Assembly (NCBI GenBank): GCA_036403155.1
Contig: DASWRM010000037.1
Location: forward strand, 1-64,000
Direction of reading: 5' to 3'
Source: Gaiellales bacterium
Lineage (GTDB): Bacteria; Actinomycetota; Thermoleophilia; Gaiellales; JAICJC01
DNA length: 64,000 nt
Shown: positions 38,122-46,038 of the stretch, in pieces
How positions within the stretch are numbered: the stretch's first letter is position 1
How the letters are laid out: every line of letters starts with the position of its first letter
Notes under the pieces: generated by a model
What the model was told of the DNA's origin: nothing
What the model saw: only the letters and a program-made list of their open reading frames with translations
Databases searched by the model: none
Program-made: the position numbers and the translations under genes

Positions 38122-39567
38122 TCAGCCTGCGACCTGGTGCGCATCGCGGAGCGCATCCCAGGCCTGCTGCACGTGCTCCCATCGCGTCGCGGCGTTCCCG
38201 ATCGCAATCCGGATCGCATACCGCCCGCTCACCTTCGTGTGCGAGACGAACGCTGCGCCGGCGCGGTTGACCGACTCCACGAGCCGGGCGTTCAGCGTCT
38301 CGAGCTGCTCGCCGTCATCCACACCGGCGGGATGCGCCCGGAAGCAGACCGTCGAGAGCGGGACCGGAGCGAGCACCTCCCATCCCGGCGTTTCACCGAC
38401 CATCGCCGCCAGCCTCGCGGCCATCTCGATGTGCCCGGCCACCAGCTCAGCCAGCCCGTCGCGCCCATACGCGCGGATCACCATCCACAGCTTCAGCGCA
38501 CGGAACCGCCGCCCGAGCGCGAGACCGTAGTCCATCAGGTTGACCACGTCGCTCTCCGAGCTGGTCAGGTAGAACGGCACGAGGGCGAATGCGTCACGCA
38601 GCACCTCGGGCCGCGACGTGTAGAGGAGGCTGCAGTCGATCGGCGTGAACAGCCACTTGTGCGGATTGAAGACGAGCGAGTCGGCGTGCTCGCAGCCGGC
38701 GAGCAGGTGCCGGTGGCTGTCGAGAAGCCCCGCCGCCCCGCCGTAGGCCGCGTCCACGTGCAGCCAGACGCCGTGGCGCCGGCAGATCTCGGCGATCTCC
38801 GGCACAGGGTCGACGCTGGTCGTCGATGTGGTGCCGACCGTGGCGACGACGGCGACCGGCCGCACTCCAGCGGCGAGGTCGCGCTCAACCGCCCCGGCGA
38901 GCAGGTCGGGGCGCATGCGAAGGGCCTCGTCGGTGCCGATCTTCTCGAGGCCGTCCTGGCCGATGCCGAGCGCGATGCATGCCTTCTCGACCGACGAGTG
39001 CGCCTCCGCGGAGGTGTACACGCGCAGCGCGGGCAGGTCGGCGCGCCCAGCCATGCCGCGGCGCCGGATGTCGAGCCCCGCCGCCTCCCGGGCCGCCGCC
39101 AGCGCGGTCATGGTCGAGCTCGACGCGGTGTCGAGGATCTCGCCGAACCAGCCGGCCGGCAGGCCGAGCATCTCGAGCACCCACTCGAGCGTCCGCTGCT
39201 CGAGCTCCGTCGCGGCCGGCGACGTCCGCCACAGCATGGCGTTCACGTTGAGCGCGCTCGCGATCAGCTCGCCGACGATGCCCGGCCCGGACCCGGTGAT
39301 GCCGAAGTACGCGAAGAATGAGGGATGGTTCCAGTGCGTGATCCCCGGCAGGACCAGGCGGTCGAGGTCGGCCATGATCGCGTCGAGCGGCTCCCCGCGC
39401 TGCGGCGCGGCGGCGGGAAGGCGGGCCGCGATCTCCCCCGGCCGCACCTGCGAGAGCACCGGGTGCTCACCGACCGACTCGAGGTATCCGGAGACCCACG
39501 CGGCCGCCTCCGCCAGCGCCTCGCGCACCTGCTGACCGGTGGGCCCGGGCCCCGTGATCGCGCTCAT
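38122..39567 (-). CDS. PLP-dependent amino-acid decarboxylase (group II, AADC-like)
   Basis: A 481-residue fold-type I PLP enzyme that would decarboxylate an L-amino acid, most likely aromatic, to an amine. THWNHPSFFAYFGITGSGPG is the AADC-type substrate region, TSAEAHSSVEKA binds the cofactor, HVDAAYGG carries the PLP-binding Asp, and FNPHKWLFTPIDCS contains the Schiff-base lysine. Length matches AADC/TDC enzymes. The ATG at 39567 has CATACT ending 6 bases upstream. It follows the Mau-like genes on the same strand with a 22-base gap, so amine production next to an amine-dehydrogenase-like set is notable. Confidence 0.92.
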   Translation of the reverse strand: MSAITGPGPTGQQVREALAEAAAWVSGYLESVGEHPVLSQVRPGEIAARLPAAAPQRGEPLDAIMADLDRLVLPGITHWNHPSFFAYFGITGSGPGIVGELIASALNVNAMLWRTSPAATELEQRTLEWVLEMLGLPAGWFGEILDTASSSTMTALAAAREAAGLDIRRRGMAGRADLPALRVYTSAEAHSSVEKACIALGIGQDGLEKIGTDEALRMRPDLLAGAVERDLAAGVRPVAVVATVGTTSTTSVDPVPEIAEICRRHGVWLHVDAAYGGAAGLLDSHRHLLAGCEHADSLVFNPHKWLFTPIDCSLLYTSRPEVLRDAFALVPFYLTSSESDVVNLMDYGLALGRRFRALKLWMVIRAYGRDGLAELVAGHIEMAARLAAMVGETPGWEVLAPVPLSTVCFRAHPAGVDDGEQLETLNARLVESVNRAGAAFVSHTKVSGRYAIRIAIGNAATRWEHVQQAWDALRDAHQVAG

Positions 39568-39589: not shown

Positions 39590-40909
39590 TCAGCCGCGGT
39601 CGATCCACGAGCCGGAGTCGTCGTACACGGTGAAGTAGCGGTGGGAGCCCGAGATGCCGGTCGTCCAGAGGAACCGGTCGGAGCCCTTGCTGATGGAGTA
39701 CACCCGCCTGCCGGCGCCGGTGCGGAGATCGAGCACCCGCACCTCCATCCGCTTCAGCGTCTGATAGACGTAGACCACCATCGTGGCGTCGATCGACGGG
39801 CCGAAGTACGAGTACCTCACGGTCGATCGGACCAGCTTGGTCGTGCCGCGATCGATGCGGTAGACGGCGATCGAGCTGCGGCTCGCGCCGGTGCGGTGAT
39901 AGACGACCCGCGGATAGGAGATGTCGGGCGCCCCGAGGTCGGTGCGGCGCTTGGAATGGGCGATCACCTTCGAGGTCGCGTCGGACAGGTCGTACAGGAC
40001 GATCTGCCGCCGGCCATCCTTGACCCGGCGGTAGACGAGCCACGAGCCGGAGAGCGCAGGGTCACGGCCCGGCAGCGTCAGCGTGTGCAGGACGTTCATG
40101 GTGGTCAGGTCGACGATCTCGAAGTCCGGGCCGGTGTCGACGACCGCCTGGGTGCCGTCCACGTCCGGCTCGAAGCCGGGCAGCGTCGTGAACGTCCCGT
40201 TCATCCGCACGACGCCCGTGAGCGCACCCCCGCTGCCGATGCGGTCGAACGCGAGCACCCCCGGTGCCGCCGAAGGATCGGCCACCGACCCCGGGCCGAG
40301 GTCGAGCCTGGTAGCGGCGCGCGCCTCCCCCGTCGCGGCGGCCAGCGCCAGCACGGCGGCCAGCAGGCCGAGGGCGGCGGCGTTGACGCGCTTCAGACGC
40401 CCGCCGGCGCCGAGCCGGGCCAGCCGTTCCACCCGGAAGCCGGCCTGCTCATACGTGCGGACGCGGACCGTGGAGGCGGCAAGCACCAGCGTCCGGCCGA
40501 CGCCGAACCCGGCCAGCACCGCCGCGCCTGACAGCGGGCCGGCGAGCGCGGCCACTCCGGCGGCGACGACGATCAGCGTGGCGACCGGCAGGTAGGTCGC
40601 GAAGCCGAGGCCGAGGCCGAGGCCGTACAGGAGCGCCGTCAACGGCTGCGGATAGCGCTCGCGCCAGCGCTCGGGCACCTGCCGGCGCAGCTGCGGGACG
40701 GGCAGGCGAACGATTCCGAGCTCGGCCGCGGCCTCCGCTACGGCGAACCCGGCCACCACCATCGCAGCCGCCCCTCCGCCCGCCGGGAGCGCCGCGCCGA
40801 GGACGAGCCCGACGAGCGCGGCGGCGCTCACCGCCCCCAGCCCGAACAGCACGATGGACGCCAGCCATGTCCGTGTCCCGTGCACGACGGGGACGATGGT
40901 CTCCACCAT
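39590..40909 (-). CDS. MauF/CcdA-like membrane domain fused to a beta-propeller
   Basis: A 439-residue two-part protein. Residues 1-190 hold about five to six membrane helices of the DsbD/CcdA type: PVVHGTRTWLASIVLFGLGA near the start and YGLGLGLGFATYLPVATLIV near 110-130, resembling MauF-like proteins. Residues 200-439 form a beta-propeller with repeated blades (PALSGSWLVYRRVKDGRRQI; ISYPRVVYHRTGASRSSIAV), like the secreted protein at 30525-31427. MauB, the large subunit of methylamine dehydrogenase, is also a propeller, but this one is shorter, and direct homology is inference. The ATG at 40909 has GAGGA 7 bases upstream. Confidence 0.65.
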   Translation of the reverse strand: MVETIVPVVHGTRTWLASIVLFGLGAVSAAALVGLVLGAALPAGGGAAAMVVAGFAVAEAAAELGIVRLPVPQLRRQVPERWRERYPQPLTALLYGLGLGLGFATYLPVATLIVVAAGVAALAGPLSGAAVLAGFGVGRTLVLAASTVRVRTYEQAGFRVERLARLGAGGRLKRVNAAALGLLAAVLALAAATGEARAATRLDLGPGSVADPSAAPGVLAFDRIGSGGALTGVVRMNGTFTTLPGFEPDVDGTQAVVDTGPDFEIVDLTTMNVLHTLTLPGRDPALSGSWLVYRRVKDGRRQIVLYDLSDATSKVIAHSKRRTDLGAPDISYPRVVYHRTGASRSSIAVYRIDRGTTKLVRSTVRYSYFGPSIDATMVVYVYQTLKRMEVRVLDLRTGAGRRVYSISKGSDRFLWTTGISGSHRYFTVYDDSGSWIDRG

Positions 40910-40995
40910 CGAGAATCCTCAGGGCGACCAGGCGCCGGACACGCCGGCGACGAGCGCGCACGCCGCGAGGGCGGCGCCGGGGTTGGGGTCCGGGA

Positions 40996-41601
40996 TCAGC
41001 ACGGGACGGTGGTCTGGTAGTACAGGACGCAGAACACCTTGCGGCCGTTGTAGCAGTAGCCCGTCAGCGCCGCGTCCCCGTTGATGCGCGTGGCGGTGTG
41101 GGCGCAGCAGTCGACGAGCTTGCGGATGGTGCCGCCGCAGCAGCGGTACCATCCGCCGTCGAACTGCGCGTGCAGGTGATAGCGCTCGAGCACCCAGTCC
41201 TGGCAGAGGCGCGTGCGCGGCGCGCGCGGCACCGGGTCGCCCGTCGGGCCGAGGACGCGATCGCCCTGCTCGTCGACGACGTAGCCGTCGCGGTCGACGA
41301 GGCGACCGAGGTTGTCGACGCGGTGGCCGTCCTTCGGCCGCAGCGGGCGGCCGCGGCGGTCGATGCGAGGCGGGAAGTACGGGCCGGGGCAGTGGTGGGT
41401 GGTGTACGTGTGCCCGCAGAAGCCGTAGTAGCGGGCCTCCGCCGTGTCCGGCGCCACGGCGCTGGCCGCCAGCCGCCCGGACGTCGCGGCGACGGCGGCC
41501 GCGCCCAGCCGCCCGAGGAAGCCGCGGCGCGTGTGCGACGACGCCAGCCGCCGGGCCAGGCGCTCGCCCGGCGGGGTGCCGGCGTCATGCCGCCCGAACA
41601 C
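40996..41601 (-). CDS. MauA-like Cys-rich Tat substrate lacking TTQ tryptophans
   Basis: A 201-residue exported protein. Residues 24-29 (TRRGFL) and the following helix form a Tat signal, as in methylamine dehydrogenase small subunit MauA. The mature protein has ten cysteines (62, 71, 133, 154, 155, 165, 166, 183, 191, 201). GGWYRCCGGTIRKLVDCC and GYCYNGRKVFCVLYY align with the CSGG...C and SCYNPTDG... regions of MauA. The two tryptophans that build the TTQ cofactor have no counterpart: the position before CYN reads DAALTGYC, and no Trp follows residue 151. The start is GTG at 41601, overlapping the MauED stop by 17 bases. Family link is moderately sure; activity is unlikely to be classic MADH. 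Confidence 0.6.
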   Translation of the reverse strand: MFGRHDAGTPPGERLARRLASSHTRRGFLGRLGAAAVAATSGRLAASAVAPDTAEARYYGFCGHTYTTHHCPGPYFPPRIDRRGRPLRPKDGHRVDNLGRLVDRDGYVVDEQGDRVLGPTGDPVPRAPRTRLCQDWVLERYHLHAQFDGGWYRCCGGTIRKLVDCCAHTATRINGDAALTGYCYNGRKVFCVLYYQTTVPC

Positions 41602-42460
41602 CGACCCGCTCCCGCTCGCGGGCGCGCCCGGTCAGGACGACGGCCTCGAGCTGCTCGAGGGTGTTGACCGTCCCCTTCGCGCGCACCAGTCCCTCCGCAT
41701 CGACGTACACCGCGAACGGCGTCCCGGGCACCATGAACCACTCGTGCAGCCGCCGCCCCGCCTCGTCCTCGTGACGTGCGTGCTCGACGTGCAAGGCGTG
41801 GTCGCTCGCCAGCGGGCGCAGCCCAGGGACGATCTGCGCGCAGATGGGGCAGGACTCGGAGGTGAAGACCACGAGCCGGCCGGCGAAGCCGTCGGGGGCC
41901 GGCTCGCCCAGCGGGAGCCCCTCTCCCTCGTGCTCGAAGGCCCCCCGCGGCCCCAGCCGCAGATGCAGCACGCCGACCTGGCGGTACAGCGCCAGGACGA
42001 GCGCCGCCAGCCCGGCCACCGCCACCCACAGCGCGACATAGGTGGCGGTCCAGAAGCCGTCGCCGAGACGGATGTGGACGCCGGCGCCTGCGGCGACGGC
42101 CGCCGCTCCCAGCACCGCGTTGCGCAGCAGCGCCGACGGGCCGGGGCGCGAGGCGACGCCGGGAAGGCAGCCGCACGCCGGCGGGGCCGCGCCGCTCGCC
42201 AGCTCCACCGCCAGCGCCGCCGTGAACGCCGCGAGCAGCCCGGCGGCGAGCCATCCGGCGGCGCGCATGCCGGCCAGCAGCCCGGCGCCGGCGACCAGCT
42301 CGGCGCCCGGAACGCCGACCGCCACGACGGCGGCCGGCCGCGCCAGGCGATACGCCCCGACCGCCTCGCGGAACGCCCGGAACCGGACGATCTTCGCCCC
42401 ACCCACGATGACGAACAGCCCGCCCAGAAGCGGGGCGATCGGTGCTTCAACTGTCCCCAT
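41585..42460 (-). CDS. MauE-MauD fusion redox protein
   Basis: A 291-residue membrane protein joining two Mau accessory modules. Residues 1-150 are the MauE/DoxX-like four-helix bundle, including a CGC pair (C96, C98; ACGCLPG). Residues 155-291 are MauD-like: the join QVGVLHLRLGPRGAFEHEGE and GLPLGEPAP, then a thioredoxin-fold domain with CPIC at 204-207. In Paracoccus, MauE and MauD are separate proteins needed for disulfide formation in the small subunit MauA. Here they would serve the ten-Cys protein encoded immediately downstream. The ATG at 42460 has TAGCAT ending 9 bases upstream. Confidence 0.82.
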   Translation of the reverse strand: MGTVEAPIAPLLGGLFVIVGGAKIVRFRAFREAVGAYRLARPAAVVAVGVPGAELVAGAGLLAGMRAAGWLAAGLLAAFTAALAVELASGAAPPACGCLPGVASRPGPSALLRNAVLGAAAVAAGAGVHIRLGDGFWTATYVALWVAVAGLAALVLALYRQVGVLHLRLGPRGAFEHEGEGLPLGEPAPDGFAGRLVVFTSESCPICAQIVPGLRPLASDHALHVEHARHEDEAGRRLHEWFMVPGTPFAVYVDAEGLVRAKGTVNTLEQLEAVVLTGRARERERVGVRAA

Positions 42461-42562: not shown

Positions 42563-43882
42563 CTACAGCGCCGATTCCACCTCGACGACCGCCGCCTCGA
42601 GCCGCGACAGCATCTCGGCGATCTCGTCGTCGCCGATGACCAGCGGCGGGGCGAGCATGACCGCGTCCATGTGCTGGTTCAGGACCGGAGTCGGGCAGGG
42701 GTAGATCATGAGGCCGCGCTCGCGCGCGGCGCCGGTCAGCCGGCCGGTGACCCGCTCGGATGCCTGGAAGCGGTCCCCGGTGGCCGGATGGCGGAGCTCG
42801 ATGCCCTGCAGCAGGCCCCGCCCGCGCAGGCCGGCCATGAGCGGGTGCGCGACCGCCATCTGCTCCAGCTCGCGGCGGATCAGCTTCCCCTTGCGCTCGG
42901 CCTCGGCGACGAGGTCATCCTCCTCGATCGCGTCGATCACGGCGCAGCCCACGGCGCAGCCGAGCGGATAGCCCGAGAACGTGTGACCGTACGAGAAGCC
43001 GTGCGGCGCGCTGCCGACCACCTCGCGGATCGCTCGGCTCGCGACCATGCCCGACAGCGGCACGACGCCGCCGCCGATGCCCTTCCCGAACGTGATCACG
43101 TCGGGCACGGCGTCGTGGTGCTCGACGCCGAACCACCTGCCGGTGCGGCCGAACGCGGTGATGATCTCGTCCGCGACGAGCAGCACGTCGTAGCGGTCGC
43201 AGATCTCGCGCACGGCGGCCAGATAGCCGGGCGGCAGGTCGACGGCCGCGCCGGACGAGCCGGTGACCGGCTCCACGATGAACGCGGCGACATGCTCAGC
43301 GCCGCGGCTCTGGATGGCGGCCTCGAGCTCGGCCGCCCCCTGCTCGGCCGACTCCGCATTCGGCACGGCGGCGTACTTGTGCAGGAGCGACTCGAACGGC
43401 GCCCGCCAGCGCGACCCAGACAGCGACAGCGCTCCCAGCGTGGAGCCGTGGTACGACGTCACGCGCGAGAGGAACTCGATCTTCGCGGGGTTGCCGCGGA
43501 GCTCGTGATAGAGCACCGCGAGGTGCATCGCCGACTCGTTGGCCTCCGAGCCGGACGAGTTGAAGAACGACCATTCCAGATCGCCTGGGGCGCGGCCTGC
43601 GATCCGCTCGGCCAGATCCAGCATGGGCCGGTTGCGGAACGAGAAGCGGTACGTGAAGTTGAGTGCCTGGGACTGCTGCTCGAGCGCCGCCACCACCCGC
43701 GGATGGCTGTGGCCGAGCAGCATGACCATCGCGCCGCCGCACGCGTCCAGGTAGCGGGCGCCGTCCGCCGTCTCGATCCAGCAGCCGCGGGCCCGCACGG
43801 CGACCGGCAGCGGCTCACCGGCCGTCATCGAGTAGTCGACGTCGTCGAGCCCGGGGGCCGGCGTGATGGGCGTGGCTTCCAT
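42563..43882 (-). CDS. Class III (omega) aminotransferase
   Basis: A 439-residue PLP transaminase. Family motifs are DACGGAMVMLLGHSHPRVV, FFNSSGSEANESAMHLA (cofactor phosphate binding), LLVADEIITAFGRTG with the PLP Asp, and ITFGKGIGGGVVPL with the Schiff-base lysine. Class III enzymes use amines, omega-amino acids or ornithine-type donors; the exact substrate cannot be told. The ATG at 43882 has TACACT (43894-43889) ending 6 bases upstream. It stands 102 bases upstream of the MauED gene on the same strand, but the promoter box before MauED suggests separate transcription. Confidence 0.92.
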   Translation of the reverse strand: MEATPITPAPGLDDVDYSMTAGEPLPVAVRARGCWIETADGARYLDACGGAMVMLLGHSHPRVVAALEQQSQALNFTYRFSFRNRPMLDLAERIAGRAPGDLEWSFFNSSGSEANESAMHLAVLYHELRGNPAKIEFLSRVTSYHGSTLGALSLSGSRWRAPFESLLHKYAAVPNAESAEQGAAELEAAIQSRGAEHVAAFIVEPVTGSSGAAVDLPPGYLAAVREICDRYDVLLVADEIITAFGRTGRWFGVEHHDAVPDVITFGKGIGGGVVPLSGMVASRAIREVVGSAPHGFSYGHTFSGYPLGCAVGCAVIDAIEEDDLVAEAERKGKLIRRELEQMAVAHPLMAGLRGRGLLQGIELRHPATGDRFQASERVTGRLTGAARERGLMIYPCPTPVLNQHMDAVMLAPPLVIGDDEIAEMLSRLEAAVVEVESAL

Positions 43883-43904: not shown

Positions 43905-45521
43905 TCAGATCGACTGCGGAGGGGCGGCCAGCTCTGCCTGGAGCTCGATCAGCGTGGAGCCGCCGGCACGAACGGAGAGCGCCTCTCGCAGCGCGGCCCC
44001 GGCCTCGGCCGTCGAGCCGATCCGCCGGTAGGCCACGCCGTAGGCTCCGGCCAGCTGCTCGAAGTCGGGCGAGCGCAGGTCGACCGAGCTCGAGTGCCCG
44101 TAGGCGGACATCTGGTAGTTCTTGAGGACACCGAAGCAGCTGTCGTTTACCAAGAGGACAACCATGTTGAGACCGTTCTGCTGCGCGGTGGCAAGCTCGT
44201 GGCCGCCCATCAGGAATCCACCGTCGCCGACCAGGACGACCACCGGCGCGTCCGGGTTTGCGGCGACCGCGCCGAGGGCGGTGGGTATGCCGGATCCGAG
44301 CGCACCGCTCATCGGGTAGGCGAAGCCGCCGGGACGGCGGGCGTCCAGGTACAGCACGCCCCAGTAGGACTGGATCGTCATGTCGGCGACGATCAGCGCG
44401 TCGGCGGGAAGCGCAACGTCCAGCTGGTGCATCAGCTCACGCTCGGCCTCGAACCCGTGCGCCGCCACCTCGGACTGGCGGCCGGCGAGCGCGGCGCGGG
44501 CCTCGGCGGCCCCGTCCCGGCTCCCGGCGTCGACGCCGCCGGCCAGCAGCGCGTCGCAGAAGAGGCCGACGTCGGCGACCACCCCCTCGCGGACGGGGTA
44601 GTTCCGGCCGATGCGGGAGGGGTCGACGTCGACCTGCGCGAGCGCGTCCGGGAAGCGGACGGCCCAGTGGCAGGTGTACTCCTCGGCGAAGCGGGTGCCC
44701 AGGGCGACGCAGGCGTCGCTTGCCGAGACCAGGCGACGGATCGACGGCTCCTCGCAGGACGACCCGGCGTGAAGCGGGTGGCCTGGCGGAACGACGCCCT
44801 TGCCGTTGAAGCTCGTGACGACCGGCGCGTCGAGCGCCTCCGCAAGCGCGACCACACGGTCGGCCGCGAGCCGGCTGCCGCCGCCCGCGAACACGAGCGG
44901 CGCCTGCGCGCCGGCGAGCATCTCCTGGACGCGCGTGACGGCGGCCGCATCGGGCGCCGGGGCCGAGAGCGGCGTGACCCGCGGCTCGACCGCCTCTGCC
45001 GGCGCCGTCAGGACGGTCGTCATGGCCTCGATCATCGCGGGCCCCGGCCGCGTGGCGATCGCGCAGAGCGCCTCGTCGACGGCCGCCGCGAGCGCCGCTG
45101 GGGTCTGCGGCCGGACGTGGTGGCGCGTGACGGCGGAGAACGCGCCGGTCTGACCGGCCGTCTCGTGCATCCAGCCGCGCTCGCCGGCGTCGCTCGGCAC
45201 CTGCGTGGTGATGTGGAGCACCCGGAGGCTCGAGGCGTCGGCCTCCCCCATGCCGGCGAAGGCGTTGAACGCCCCCGGGCCCGTGCTCGTGATGCAGACG
45301 CCGACGCGGCCGCTGGTGCGCGCGTAGCCGACCGCCGCAAACGCCGCCGCCTGCTCGTGGCGGACGACGACGGCGCGGATCGGCGACCCACGCAGGGCCT
45401 CCCACAGGCTGAGCGCGTGCTGTCCGGGAATGCCGAAGACGACCTCGACGCCATGTGCTTCGAGTGCGGCAACCAGCGCCTCGGCGCCGGTGCGGACGCG
45501 GGTCTGCGCGGCGACCGTCAT
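43905..45521 (-). CDS. Thiamine-diphosphate enzyme of the acetolactate synthase family
   Basis: A 538-residue ThDP enzyme with the three domains of the family. The N-terminal PYR domain has VVVRHEQAAAFAAVGYAR with the catalytic Glu and TSTGPGAFNAF. A central domain covers about 190-320. The C-terminal PP domain has VVLVGDGGFLMGGHELATA, then VLLVNDSCFGV, the GDG...N ThDP/Mg motif. No acetolactate regulatory subunit is adjacent, so it is better seen as a catabolic or 2-oxoacid decarboxylase/carboligase relative. The ATG at 45521 has TAGCGT ending 7 bases upstream. Confidence 0.9.
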   Translation of the reverse strand: MTVAAQTRVRTGAEALVAALEAHGVEVVFGIPGQHALSLWEALRGSPIRAVVVRHEQAAAFAAVGYARTSGRVGVCITSTGPGAFNAFAGMGEADASSLRVLHITTQVPSDAGERGWMHETAGQTGAFSAVTRHHVRPQTPAALAAAVDEALCAIATRPGPAMIEAMTTVLTAPAEAVEPRVTPLSAPAPDAAAVTRVQEMLAGAQAPLVFAGGGSRLAADRVVALAEALDAPVVTSFNGKGVVPPGHPLHAGSSCEEPSIRRLVSASDACVALGTRFAEEYTCHWAVRFPDALAQVDVDPSRIGRNYPVREGVVADVGLFCDALLAGGVDAGSRDGAAEARAALAGRQSEVAAHGFEAERELMHQLDVALPADALIVADMTIQSYWGVLYLDARRPGGFAYPMSGALGSGIPTALGAVAANPDAPVVVLVGDGGFLMGGHELATAQQNGLNMVVLLVNDSCFGVLKNYQMSAYGHSSSVDLRSPDFEQLAGAYGVAYRRIGSTAEAGAALREALSVRAGGSTLIELQAELAAPPQSI

Positions 45522-45561: not shown

Positions 45562-46038
45562 CTACTTGCTCAGGCTGAGGATGTACGCGGCCAGGTCCTT
45601 GGCATCCTGGCCGGTCGCGAGCCCGGGCGGCATGCCGGCGCCGCCGTTCTGGATCTGCGTGAGGATCACATCCTCGGTCAGGCTGCCCGACGCGCTGAGG
45701 TCGGCGAGGTTCGGGGCGGCCGGATTCGGCGACCCCGTCCCCGACTGCGCAGAGTGGCAGCTGGAGCACGTGCGCTGGGTGAACAGGGCCTGCCCTGCGG
45801 TGGCATTGCCGTCGGGGGCGCCGCCCGAGGAGCCGCCGCTCTGGCCGCCGCCGCTGGACGCGGGCGGCACGCTGGTCTGCGTCGACCCGACGGTCGAGGC
45901 CGCCGTCGACAGGCTGAGATCGCCGAGCCCGACGCTCGAGGCGCCGCTCGTGTCCGTCCCGGAGATGGCGATGACGGCAACCATGACGACGATGCCGATG
46001 ATGGTGCCGACAAGCGCTGCAGTGAGAACCTTGATCAT
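45562..46038 (-). CDS. Membrane-anchored class I cytochrome c
   Basis: A 158-residue electron carrier. Residues 5-26 are a membrane anchor or uncleaved signal, residues 28-78 a Ser/Gly/Thr-rich linker, and residues 80-158 a c-type domain. The haem motif is CSSCH (C91, C94, H95), and M136 in GGAGMPPG is the likely sixth ligand. It would sit on the outer face of the membrane. It could accept electrons from an exported dehydrogenase, such as the Mau-like set 3 kb away; that link is inference. The ATG at 46038 has TAGAGT ending 11 bases upstream. Confidence 0.88.
   Translation of the reverse strand: MIKVLTAALVGTIIGIVVMVAVIAISGTDTSGASSVGLGDLSLSTAASTVGSTQTSVPPASSGGGQSGGSSGGAPDGNATAGQALFTQRTCSSCHSAQSGTGSPNPAAPNLADLSASGSLTEDVILTQIQNGGAGMPPGLATGQDAKDLAAYILSLSK

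What the first reader, a model, noticed from the sequence alone, without database searches (positions are those of the whole stretch)
39590..42460. Rebuilt methylamine-dehydrogenase-like locus whose small subunit lacks TTQ residues
Three adjacent minus-strand genes encode all main Mau modules, but re-packaged. MauE and MauD are fused (CGC pair and CPIC in one chain), followed by a Tat-exported ten-Cys protein that aligns with MauA around RCCGGT and CYNG, then a MauF/CcdA-like membrane domain fused to a beta-propeller. In classic MADH, MauB is a propeller and MauA carries a tryptophan tryptophylquinone made from two Trp residues. Here the position expected for the first reads DAALTGYC, and no Trp follows residue 151. 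No MauG is visible. The set may be a quinone-free or differently modified redox complex, or a disulfide-rich binding protein with its own oxidative folding machinery.
Basis: partly seen in the sequence, partly recalled or inferred. Interest (0 to 1): 0.82.

Follow-up and report, generated by a model that had tools for sequence, protein, structure and literature searches.

The report
Hidden selenocysteine MauF in disulfide module
A three-gene Mau-like cluster in an actinobacterium hides a previously unlisted selenium-containing membrane protein (a MauF homologue whose key cysteine is encoded as UGA selenocysteine) that most likely helps mature an exported ten-cysteine protein, and the same module is spread across many Actinomycetota.

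Summary
The three genes are real and form a unit kept together in dozens of Actinomycetota genomes. MauE, MauD and MauF homology is confirmed by profiles. The exported ten-Cys protein shares only its Tat leader with MauA: its mature part matches MauA neither by profile nor by structure, and the propeller is not MauB by sequence. So this is not a rebuilt methylamine dehydrogenase.

The MauF-propeller gene does not start at 40909. It starts at 41002 and runs through an in-frame TGA (40919-40921), exactly where relatives and Paracoccus MauF have Cys (WSP[U/C]G). Evidence for selenocysteine: 36 distinct TGA and 27 distinct Cys versions; a covarying bSECIS hairpin absent from Cys versions; selA, selB and tRNA-Sec in the genome; and association of TGA-MauF with SelA across genomes. 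The family is not among 119 listed prokaryotic selenoprotein families and has no Pfam or NCBIfam model.

Best explanation: MauF/MauE/MauD form a membrane thiol/selenol relay that sets disulfides in a Tat-exported Cys-rich client. Sec decoding is strongly supported; the relay is inferred; the client's function is unknown.

The parts
41585..42460 (-). MauE-MauD fusion: four-helix MauE domain (CGC pair) then membrane-anchored thioredoxin domain (CPIC)
   Evidence: PF07291 E 8e-18, TIGR02661 E 1e-15 (below its equivalog cut-off); profile vs P. denitrificans MauE E 1.6e-14 and MauD E 5e-18
40996..41601 (-). Tat-exported ten-Cys protein, inferred client of the module
   Evidence: Ten Cys and W151 invariant or nearly so in A1/A3; leader matches MauA leader E 1e-8, mature part does not; confident AlphaFold model without PDB match
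39590..41002 (-). Full MauF-propeller selenoprotein gene, 470 residues counting Sec28; GTG start overlaps the stop of the Cys-protein gene
   Evidence: Frame and alignment with Cys forms; 1 TGA inside the profile match
40919..40921 (-). In-frame TGA read as selenocysteine (WSPUG motif)
   Evidence: TGA/Cys exchange at this codon in 36 + 27 distinct sequences; SelA, SelB, tRNA-Sec in the genome
40875..40893 (-). bSECIS hairpin, loop CGUGC, 32 nt after the TGA
   Evidence: 95.1% paired cells in TGA forms with covariation, 38% in Cys forms; meets constraints in PMC13188914
40380..41002 (-). MauF membrane domain
   Evidence: hhalign to P. denitrificans MauF 99.5%, E 2e-22, controls negative
39590..40309 (-). 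C-terminal extracytoplasmic beta-propeller domain
   Evidence: AlphaFold strands with high pLDDT; Foldseek best matches TolB-type propellers; not MauB by profile

Best explanation
The locus is a dedicated extracytoplasmic thiol-redox (disulfide-maturation) module whose membrane component is a selenoprotein. MauF carries one selenocysteine at the WSPUG motif near its first membrane helix and is made by UGA recoding with a SECIS hairpin. MauE (CGC pair) and MauD (CPIC thioredoxin domain) work with it to form or correct the disulfides (up to five) of the Tat-exported ten-Cys protein. SHOWN by computation: Sec/Cys exchange, SECIS, Sec machinery, homology to MauE/D/F, conserved gene order. INFERRED: that MauF, MauE and MauD pass electrons to each other, the direction of transfer, and that the ten-Cys protein is their client; that the propeller holds or presents the client. 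The client's own function is unknown; a cell-envelope role is suggested because relatives of the module sit with Cys-rich Tat proteins fused to LGFP or CWB2-like cell-wall repeats.
For: Sec: TGA or Cys at one codon in 36 and 27 distinct sequences, never TAA/TAG; covarying SECIS absent from Cys forms; SelA/SelB/tRNA-Sec in the own genome; SelA in 32/36 and 32/33 TGA genomes against 8/14 and 0/3 Cys genomes; selA within a few kb of the module in five genomes; at least 4 Sec/Cys changes on the tree. Module: MauE, MauD and MauF profile matches with negative controls; MauD-Cys protein-MauF order kept and MauE fused to either partner. Client: Tat leader like that of MauA and ten conserved Cys; the wider MauF clade also travels with Tat-exported Cys-rich proteins.
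Against: No experiment. Direction of electron flow unknown. MauF has one invariant Cys/Sec, so it needs a partner thiol that was not identified. Two genomes (G007, G122) have the Cys protein and a separate propeller gene without MauF next to it, so adjacency is not universal. 8 of 14 Cys-form genomes also have SelA, so the association is not one-to-one.
Confidence: 0.62

Rival explanations
1. Re-packaged methylamine or amine dehydrogenase with a differently modified or quinone-free small subunit: Cys protein = MauA, propeller = MauB.
For: MauF, MauE, MauD and a MauA-like Tat leader are present, and a propeller is present.
Against: Mature Cys protein matches MauA neither by profile (E 0.18) nor by fold; no Trp at the TTQ places; propeller not MauB by profile; no MauG, MauA or MauB in the genome; the propeller is absent from the module in two other groups.
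Confidence: 0.04
2. The TGA is a true stop: the MauF-propeller protein starts at ATG 40909 and the upstream similarity is a remnant or coincidence.
For: The frame is open from ATG 40909 and gene callers start there; no protein evidence for Sec.
Against: Upstream helix and WSP motif are conserved with no other stop in 36 distinct TGA forms; Cys forms read straight through; covarying SECIS only in TGA forms; association with SelA.
Confidence: 0.04
3. The Cys protein is itself a redox enzyme or carries an uncharacterised cofactor (for example at invariant W151), and MauF/E/D mature that active site rather than structural disulfides.
For: Invariant polar and aromatic residues (H64, W151, R153, R160, D164, N174, D176, Y182) beyond the Cys; in mau clusters MauF/E/D serve a cofactor-bearing subunit (established knowledge; operon).
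Against: No recognised heme- or metal-binding motif; ten Cys kept as a set; relatives of the module accompany repeat-bearing wall proteins rather than enzymes.
Confidence: 0.2
4. MauF/E/D here are a general envelope redox or selenium/sulfur-handling system and the Cys protein is a sensor or regulator, not a folding client.
For: selA lies near some modules; MauF-like genes also occur without the ten-Cys protein.
Against: Where examined, other MauF clades mostly lie beside another Tat-exported Cys-rich protein; the order MauD-Cys protein-MauF is kept across three groups.
Confidence: 0.1

Closest known systems
mau cluster of Paracoccus denitrificans (mauR-F-B-E-D-A-amicyanin-J-G; L122)
   Same: MauF, MauE and MauD homologues and a Tat-exported Cys-rich small protein with a MauA-like leader
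   Different: Sec instead of Cys in MauF; MauE-MauD and MauF-propeller fusions; no MauA, MauB, MauG or amicyanin gene; mature Cys protein unrelated by profile and fold
aralkylamine dehydrogenase cluster (aauB-mauE-mauD-aauA; L124)
   Same: MauE and MauD next to a Tat-exported Cys-rich subunit
   Different: No MauF; light chain is a TTQ protein of the MauA family
Known prokaryotic selenoprotein families (119 in PMC13188914)
   Same: UGA-coded Sec replacing a redox Cys, bSECIS, Sec/Cys homologues
   Different: No MauF or WSPUG family in the list; the listed DsbD-related entry (TsoB, UxxxxU) has another motif
DsbD/CcdA transmembrane thiol carriers
   Same: Polytopic membrane protein with an SPC-type motif near the first helix (recalled resemblance)
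   Different: No Pfam match; only one invariant Cys/Sec, while DsbD/CcdA use two

Membership tests
Bacterial selenoprotein | In-frame UGA aligned with Cys in homologues | tested here: met
   36 distinct TGA, 27 distinct Cys forms at one codon
Bacterial selenoprotein | bSECIS: G in first two loop positions, 3-9 nt loop, 4-16 bp stem, loop 16-37 nt after UGA | tested here: met
   Loop 32 nt after UGA (20 nt in the PUSLS subgroup), invariant loop G, covariation (model)
Bacterial selenoprotein | SelA, SelB, SelD and tRNA-Sec in the genome | tested here: met
   SelA, SelB and tRNA-Sec found; SelD not tested
Bacterial selenoprotein | Selenium in the protein | not testable with these tools
   Needs Se-75 labelling or mass spectrometry
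MauF | Profile match over the membrane region with WSPCG | tested here: met
   hhalign E 2e-22 over 187 columns, controls negative
MauE (PF07291) | Pfam match above the gathering score | tested here: met
   65.4 bits against 27
MauD (TIGR02661 equivalog) | Match above the equivalog cut-off | tested here: not met
   57.8 bits against 188.6; homologous domain (E 5e-18), so MauD-like rather than a MauD equivalog
MauA / TTQ light chain (PF02975, TIGR02659) | Family match over the mature domain | tested here: not met
   No Pfam match; TIGR02659 only over the leader; hhalign E 0.18 on mature parts; no fold match
MauA / TTQ light chain (PF02975, TIGR02659) | Two TTQ tryptophans | tested here: not met
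   Only W151 is invariant and no Trp follows it
Methylamine dehydrogenase heavy chain MauB (PF06433) | Family match of the propeller | tested here: not met
   No Pfam match; hhalign not significant
DsbD/CcdA | Pfam match and two conserved intramembrane Cys | tested here: not met
   No match; one invariant Cys/Sec

The most novel reading that the evidence does not exclude
MauF is the membrane-embedded catalytic component of a widespread actinobacterial disulfide-maturation system that uses selenocysteine as its only conserved redox residue, serving a range of Tat-exported Cys-rich envelope proteins (ten-Cys type here, LGFP- and CWB2-like-repeat types elsewhere), of which MauA of methylamine dehydrogenase is one specialised relative.
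Probability: 0.4. Interest if true: 0.92.

Novelty: new variant of a known kind. Interest (0 to 1): 0.84.

Why it matters
It adds a selenoprotein family that gene calling by the standard code hides, because the called start falls after the UGA, and it is a membrane protein. A Sec/Cys exchange is the usual sign of a redox-active residue, so it gives a specific, testable hypothesis for MauF, whose job in making methylamine dehydrogenase has, to my knowledge, no established answer: its WSPCG cysteine is catalytic. It may also help explain why many actinobacteria keep Sec machinery, and it points to a dedicated maturation route for Tat-exported disulfide-rich proteins.

Tried and rejected
MauA homology of the mature Cys protein: PF02975, TIGR02659, profile-profile, PDB sequence search and Foldseek all negative beyond the leader. 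MauB homology of the propeller: negative. Function from flanking genes: the PLP decarboxylase, aminotransferase and TPP enzyme next door travel with the cassette only in the closest relatives. Profile comparison of the LGFP-type clients with MauA: suggestive by eye, not significant (E 0.015); the CWB2-like type does match the C-terminal part of the window's Cys protein (E 1.5e-7). Rfam: no match to the hairpin. MauF on plasmids: the window's MauF finds none; P. denitrificans MauF finds only proteobacterial mau plasmids. My first hairpin guess (GATGGT-GGAG-ACCATC, loop 14 nt after the TGA) was dropped for the conserved one 32 nt after it. Papers: no mention of MauF, MauE or CcdA as selenoproteins in the selenium papers searched, but only open-licence papers were searchable.

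Full report
WHAT IS THERE. On the minus strand, in order of transcription: 42460-41585, a MauE-MauD fusion; 41601-40996, a Tat-leader ten-Cys protein; then a membrane-plus-propeller gene called at 40909-39590. PF07291 MauE matches the first above its cut-off, and a profile of such proteins matches P. denitrificans MauE (E 1.6e-14) and MauD (E 5e-18). The cassette is not a local accident: the Cys protein occurs in 39 of 299 genomes of the class, in 50 named or MAG contigs including Solirubrobacter and Conexibacter isolates, and in two more family-level groups of the phylum (f13, f19) in a shorter form with the same Cys pattern. The order MauD - Cys protein - MauF is kept almost everywhere, while the flanking genes change. 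MauE moves: fused to MauD in the window's class, free and divergently transcribed in f13, fused to the C-terminus of MauF in f19.

THE START IS WRONG, AND WHY. In Solirubrobacter the third gene begins upstream and reads ALVAGVTGAWSPCGFSMVETLAP. In the window the same frame upstream of ATG 40909 reads, from GTG 41002, VLIPDPNPGAALAACALVAGVSGAWSP-[TGA]-GFSMVETIVPVVHG. The GTG overlaps the stop of the Cys-protein gene (GTGCTGA). The TGA sits exactly where relatives have Cys. Across all loci there are 36 distinct TGA sequences and 27 distinct Cys sequences; no TAA or TAG was seen at that codon, although only 65% of the called genes' stops in these loci are TGA. The same organism uses TGA as a normal stop (the Cys-protein gene itself, and 20 of 24 called genes in this part of the window), so this is not a changed genetic code.

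SECIS. From 25 to 43 nt after the TGA the TGA forms have a seven-pair hairpin with a five-nt loop: 95.1% of cells pair in 32 sequences, against 38% in 27 Cys forms at the same register; 500 synonymous recodings of the TGA forms reached at most 80%. Five of seven pairs show changes on both sides, 26 such cells against 9.0 expected, 0 of 500 shuffles as high; sliding the arms destroys it. The loop G is invariant. A separate subgroup (PUSLS, L074/L077/L087/L088) has its hairpin nearer the TGA, 4 of 4 fully paired, with one pair changed on both sides. Both registers meet the bSECIS constraints listed in PMC13188914 (G in the first two loop positions, loop 16-37 nt from the UGA). Rfam has no matching model.

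SEC MACHINERY. The genome has SelA (417 bits) with a SelB frame beside it, and tRNA-Sec (63.8 bits, over the gathering score). Among genomes with the cassette, SelA was found in 32 of 36 TGA genomes; the four misses are 68-91% complete and one of them has tRNA-Sec. It was found in 8 of 14 Cys genomes, with SelA and tRNA-Sec both missing from the near-complete G001, G005 and G065. In a wider MauF clade SelA is in 32 of 33 TGA genomes, 0 of 3 Cys genomes and 22 of 44 genomes without MauF (Fisher P 3e-6 for the first against the last; genomes are related, so P is only a guide). selA lies within about 3-5 kb of the module in G131, G155, G377, G566 and G619. On a tree of 82 MauF domains the Sec/Cys state needs at least 4 changes (quick tree, some long branches).

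THE MEMBRANE DOMAIN IS MauF. A 61-row profile aligns over 187 columns with P. denitrificans MauF at E 2e-22; reversed, shuffled, MauE and NapH sequences give nothing. MauF reads STWSPCGYSS, its Cys under the Sec. MauF has no Pfam or NCBIfam model. Only one Cys/Sec is invariant, so a DsbD-like two-Cys shuttle within MauF alone is unlikely; a partner thiol in MauE (CGC) or MauD (CPIC) is the natural candidate (inference). AlphaFold gives helices to about residue 220 and a propeller after it, mean pLDDT 89; Foldseek's best matches are TolB-type propellers; no MauB match by profile.

THE CYS PROTEIN IS NOT MauA. The leaders match (E 1e-8) but the mature parts do not (E 0.18). The mature domain is predicted with high confidence from 42 sequences and has no PDB match better than E 1. 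One Trp (W151) is invariant. The C-terminal part is shared with another kind of Tat-exported Cys-rich protein (L200, L209, L210; E 1.5e-7).

HOW FAR IT SPREADS. A MauF profile search over 396 genomes of the phylum hit 79; by my count of the table 58 matches contain exactly one TGA, one 31.8-bit fragment has TAG, none has TAA. The wider clade reads RSTWSPUGESMLSSI. It sits with MauE- and MauD-like genes and with other Tat-exported Cys-rich proteins carrying LGFP repeats or CWB2-like repeats. One of these clients hits the MauA equivalog model over leader and early mature part at E 1e-5, far below its cut-off. So the pattern of MauF/E/D plus a Tat Cys-rich protein is general, and methylamine dehydrogenase may be one specialised use of it (inference).

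MECHANISM. Most likely MauD and MauE exchange disulfides with the exported Cys protein, and Sec-MauF carries electrons or makes the key exchange at the membrane. Whether the system oxidises, reduces or isomerises is open. The step from Sec to a relay is inference; Sec decoding itself is what the data carry (I put it at about 0.95).

LIMITS. No protein evidence; most genomes are MAGs; the paper library holds only open-licence papers, so earlier notice of a MauF selenoprotein elsewhere cannot be excluded; SelD was not searched.

Noticed in passing
L196-L212: A second, larger clade of TGA-MauF genes (WSPUGESM) sits with MauE/MauD-like genes and Tat-exported Cys-rich proteins bearing LGFP or CWB2-like repeats; clients look MauA-like by eye (CP.GS..GWW) without profile support.
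   Followed up: partly
L197, L205, L160, L161: selA (and in L161 selB) lies within a few kb of the MauF module, suggesting the two are linked.
   Followed up: partly
L137:7352-7939 and L134:7596-8141: Secreted ~190-aa protein family (DPND..G.LD.R.V) without Pfam match next to the module in the f13 and f19 groups.
   Followed up: no
L163:6946-7746 and L050: In G122 and G007 the propeller is a separate exported protein without MauF; G007 has a lone Cys-form MauF elsewhere (L214).
   Followed up: no
L208 (G003), L213 (G011): Very divergent TGA-containing MauF-like genes (SPUGLSF, STGUGTSM); possibly further Sec subfamilies.
   Followed up: no
window 38122-39567, 42563-43882, 43905-45521, 45562-46038: PLP decarboxylase, class-III aminotransferase, TPP enzyme and a cytochrome c flank the cassette, shared only with the closest relatives.
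   Followed up: partly
G000:C74 and G000:C61: Two SelA matches on different contigs of the window's genome (3% contamination estimate): a paralogue or a contaminant.
   Followed up: no
L042, L076, L079, L081: In several Solirubrobacter two large genes on the opposite strand are inserted between the Cys-protein gene and the MauF gene.
   Followed up: no
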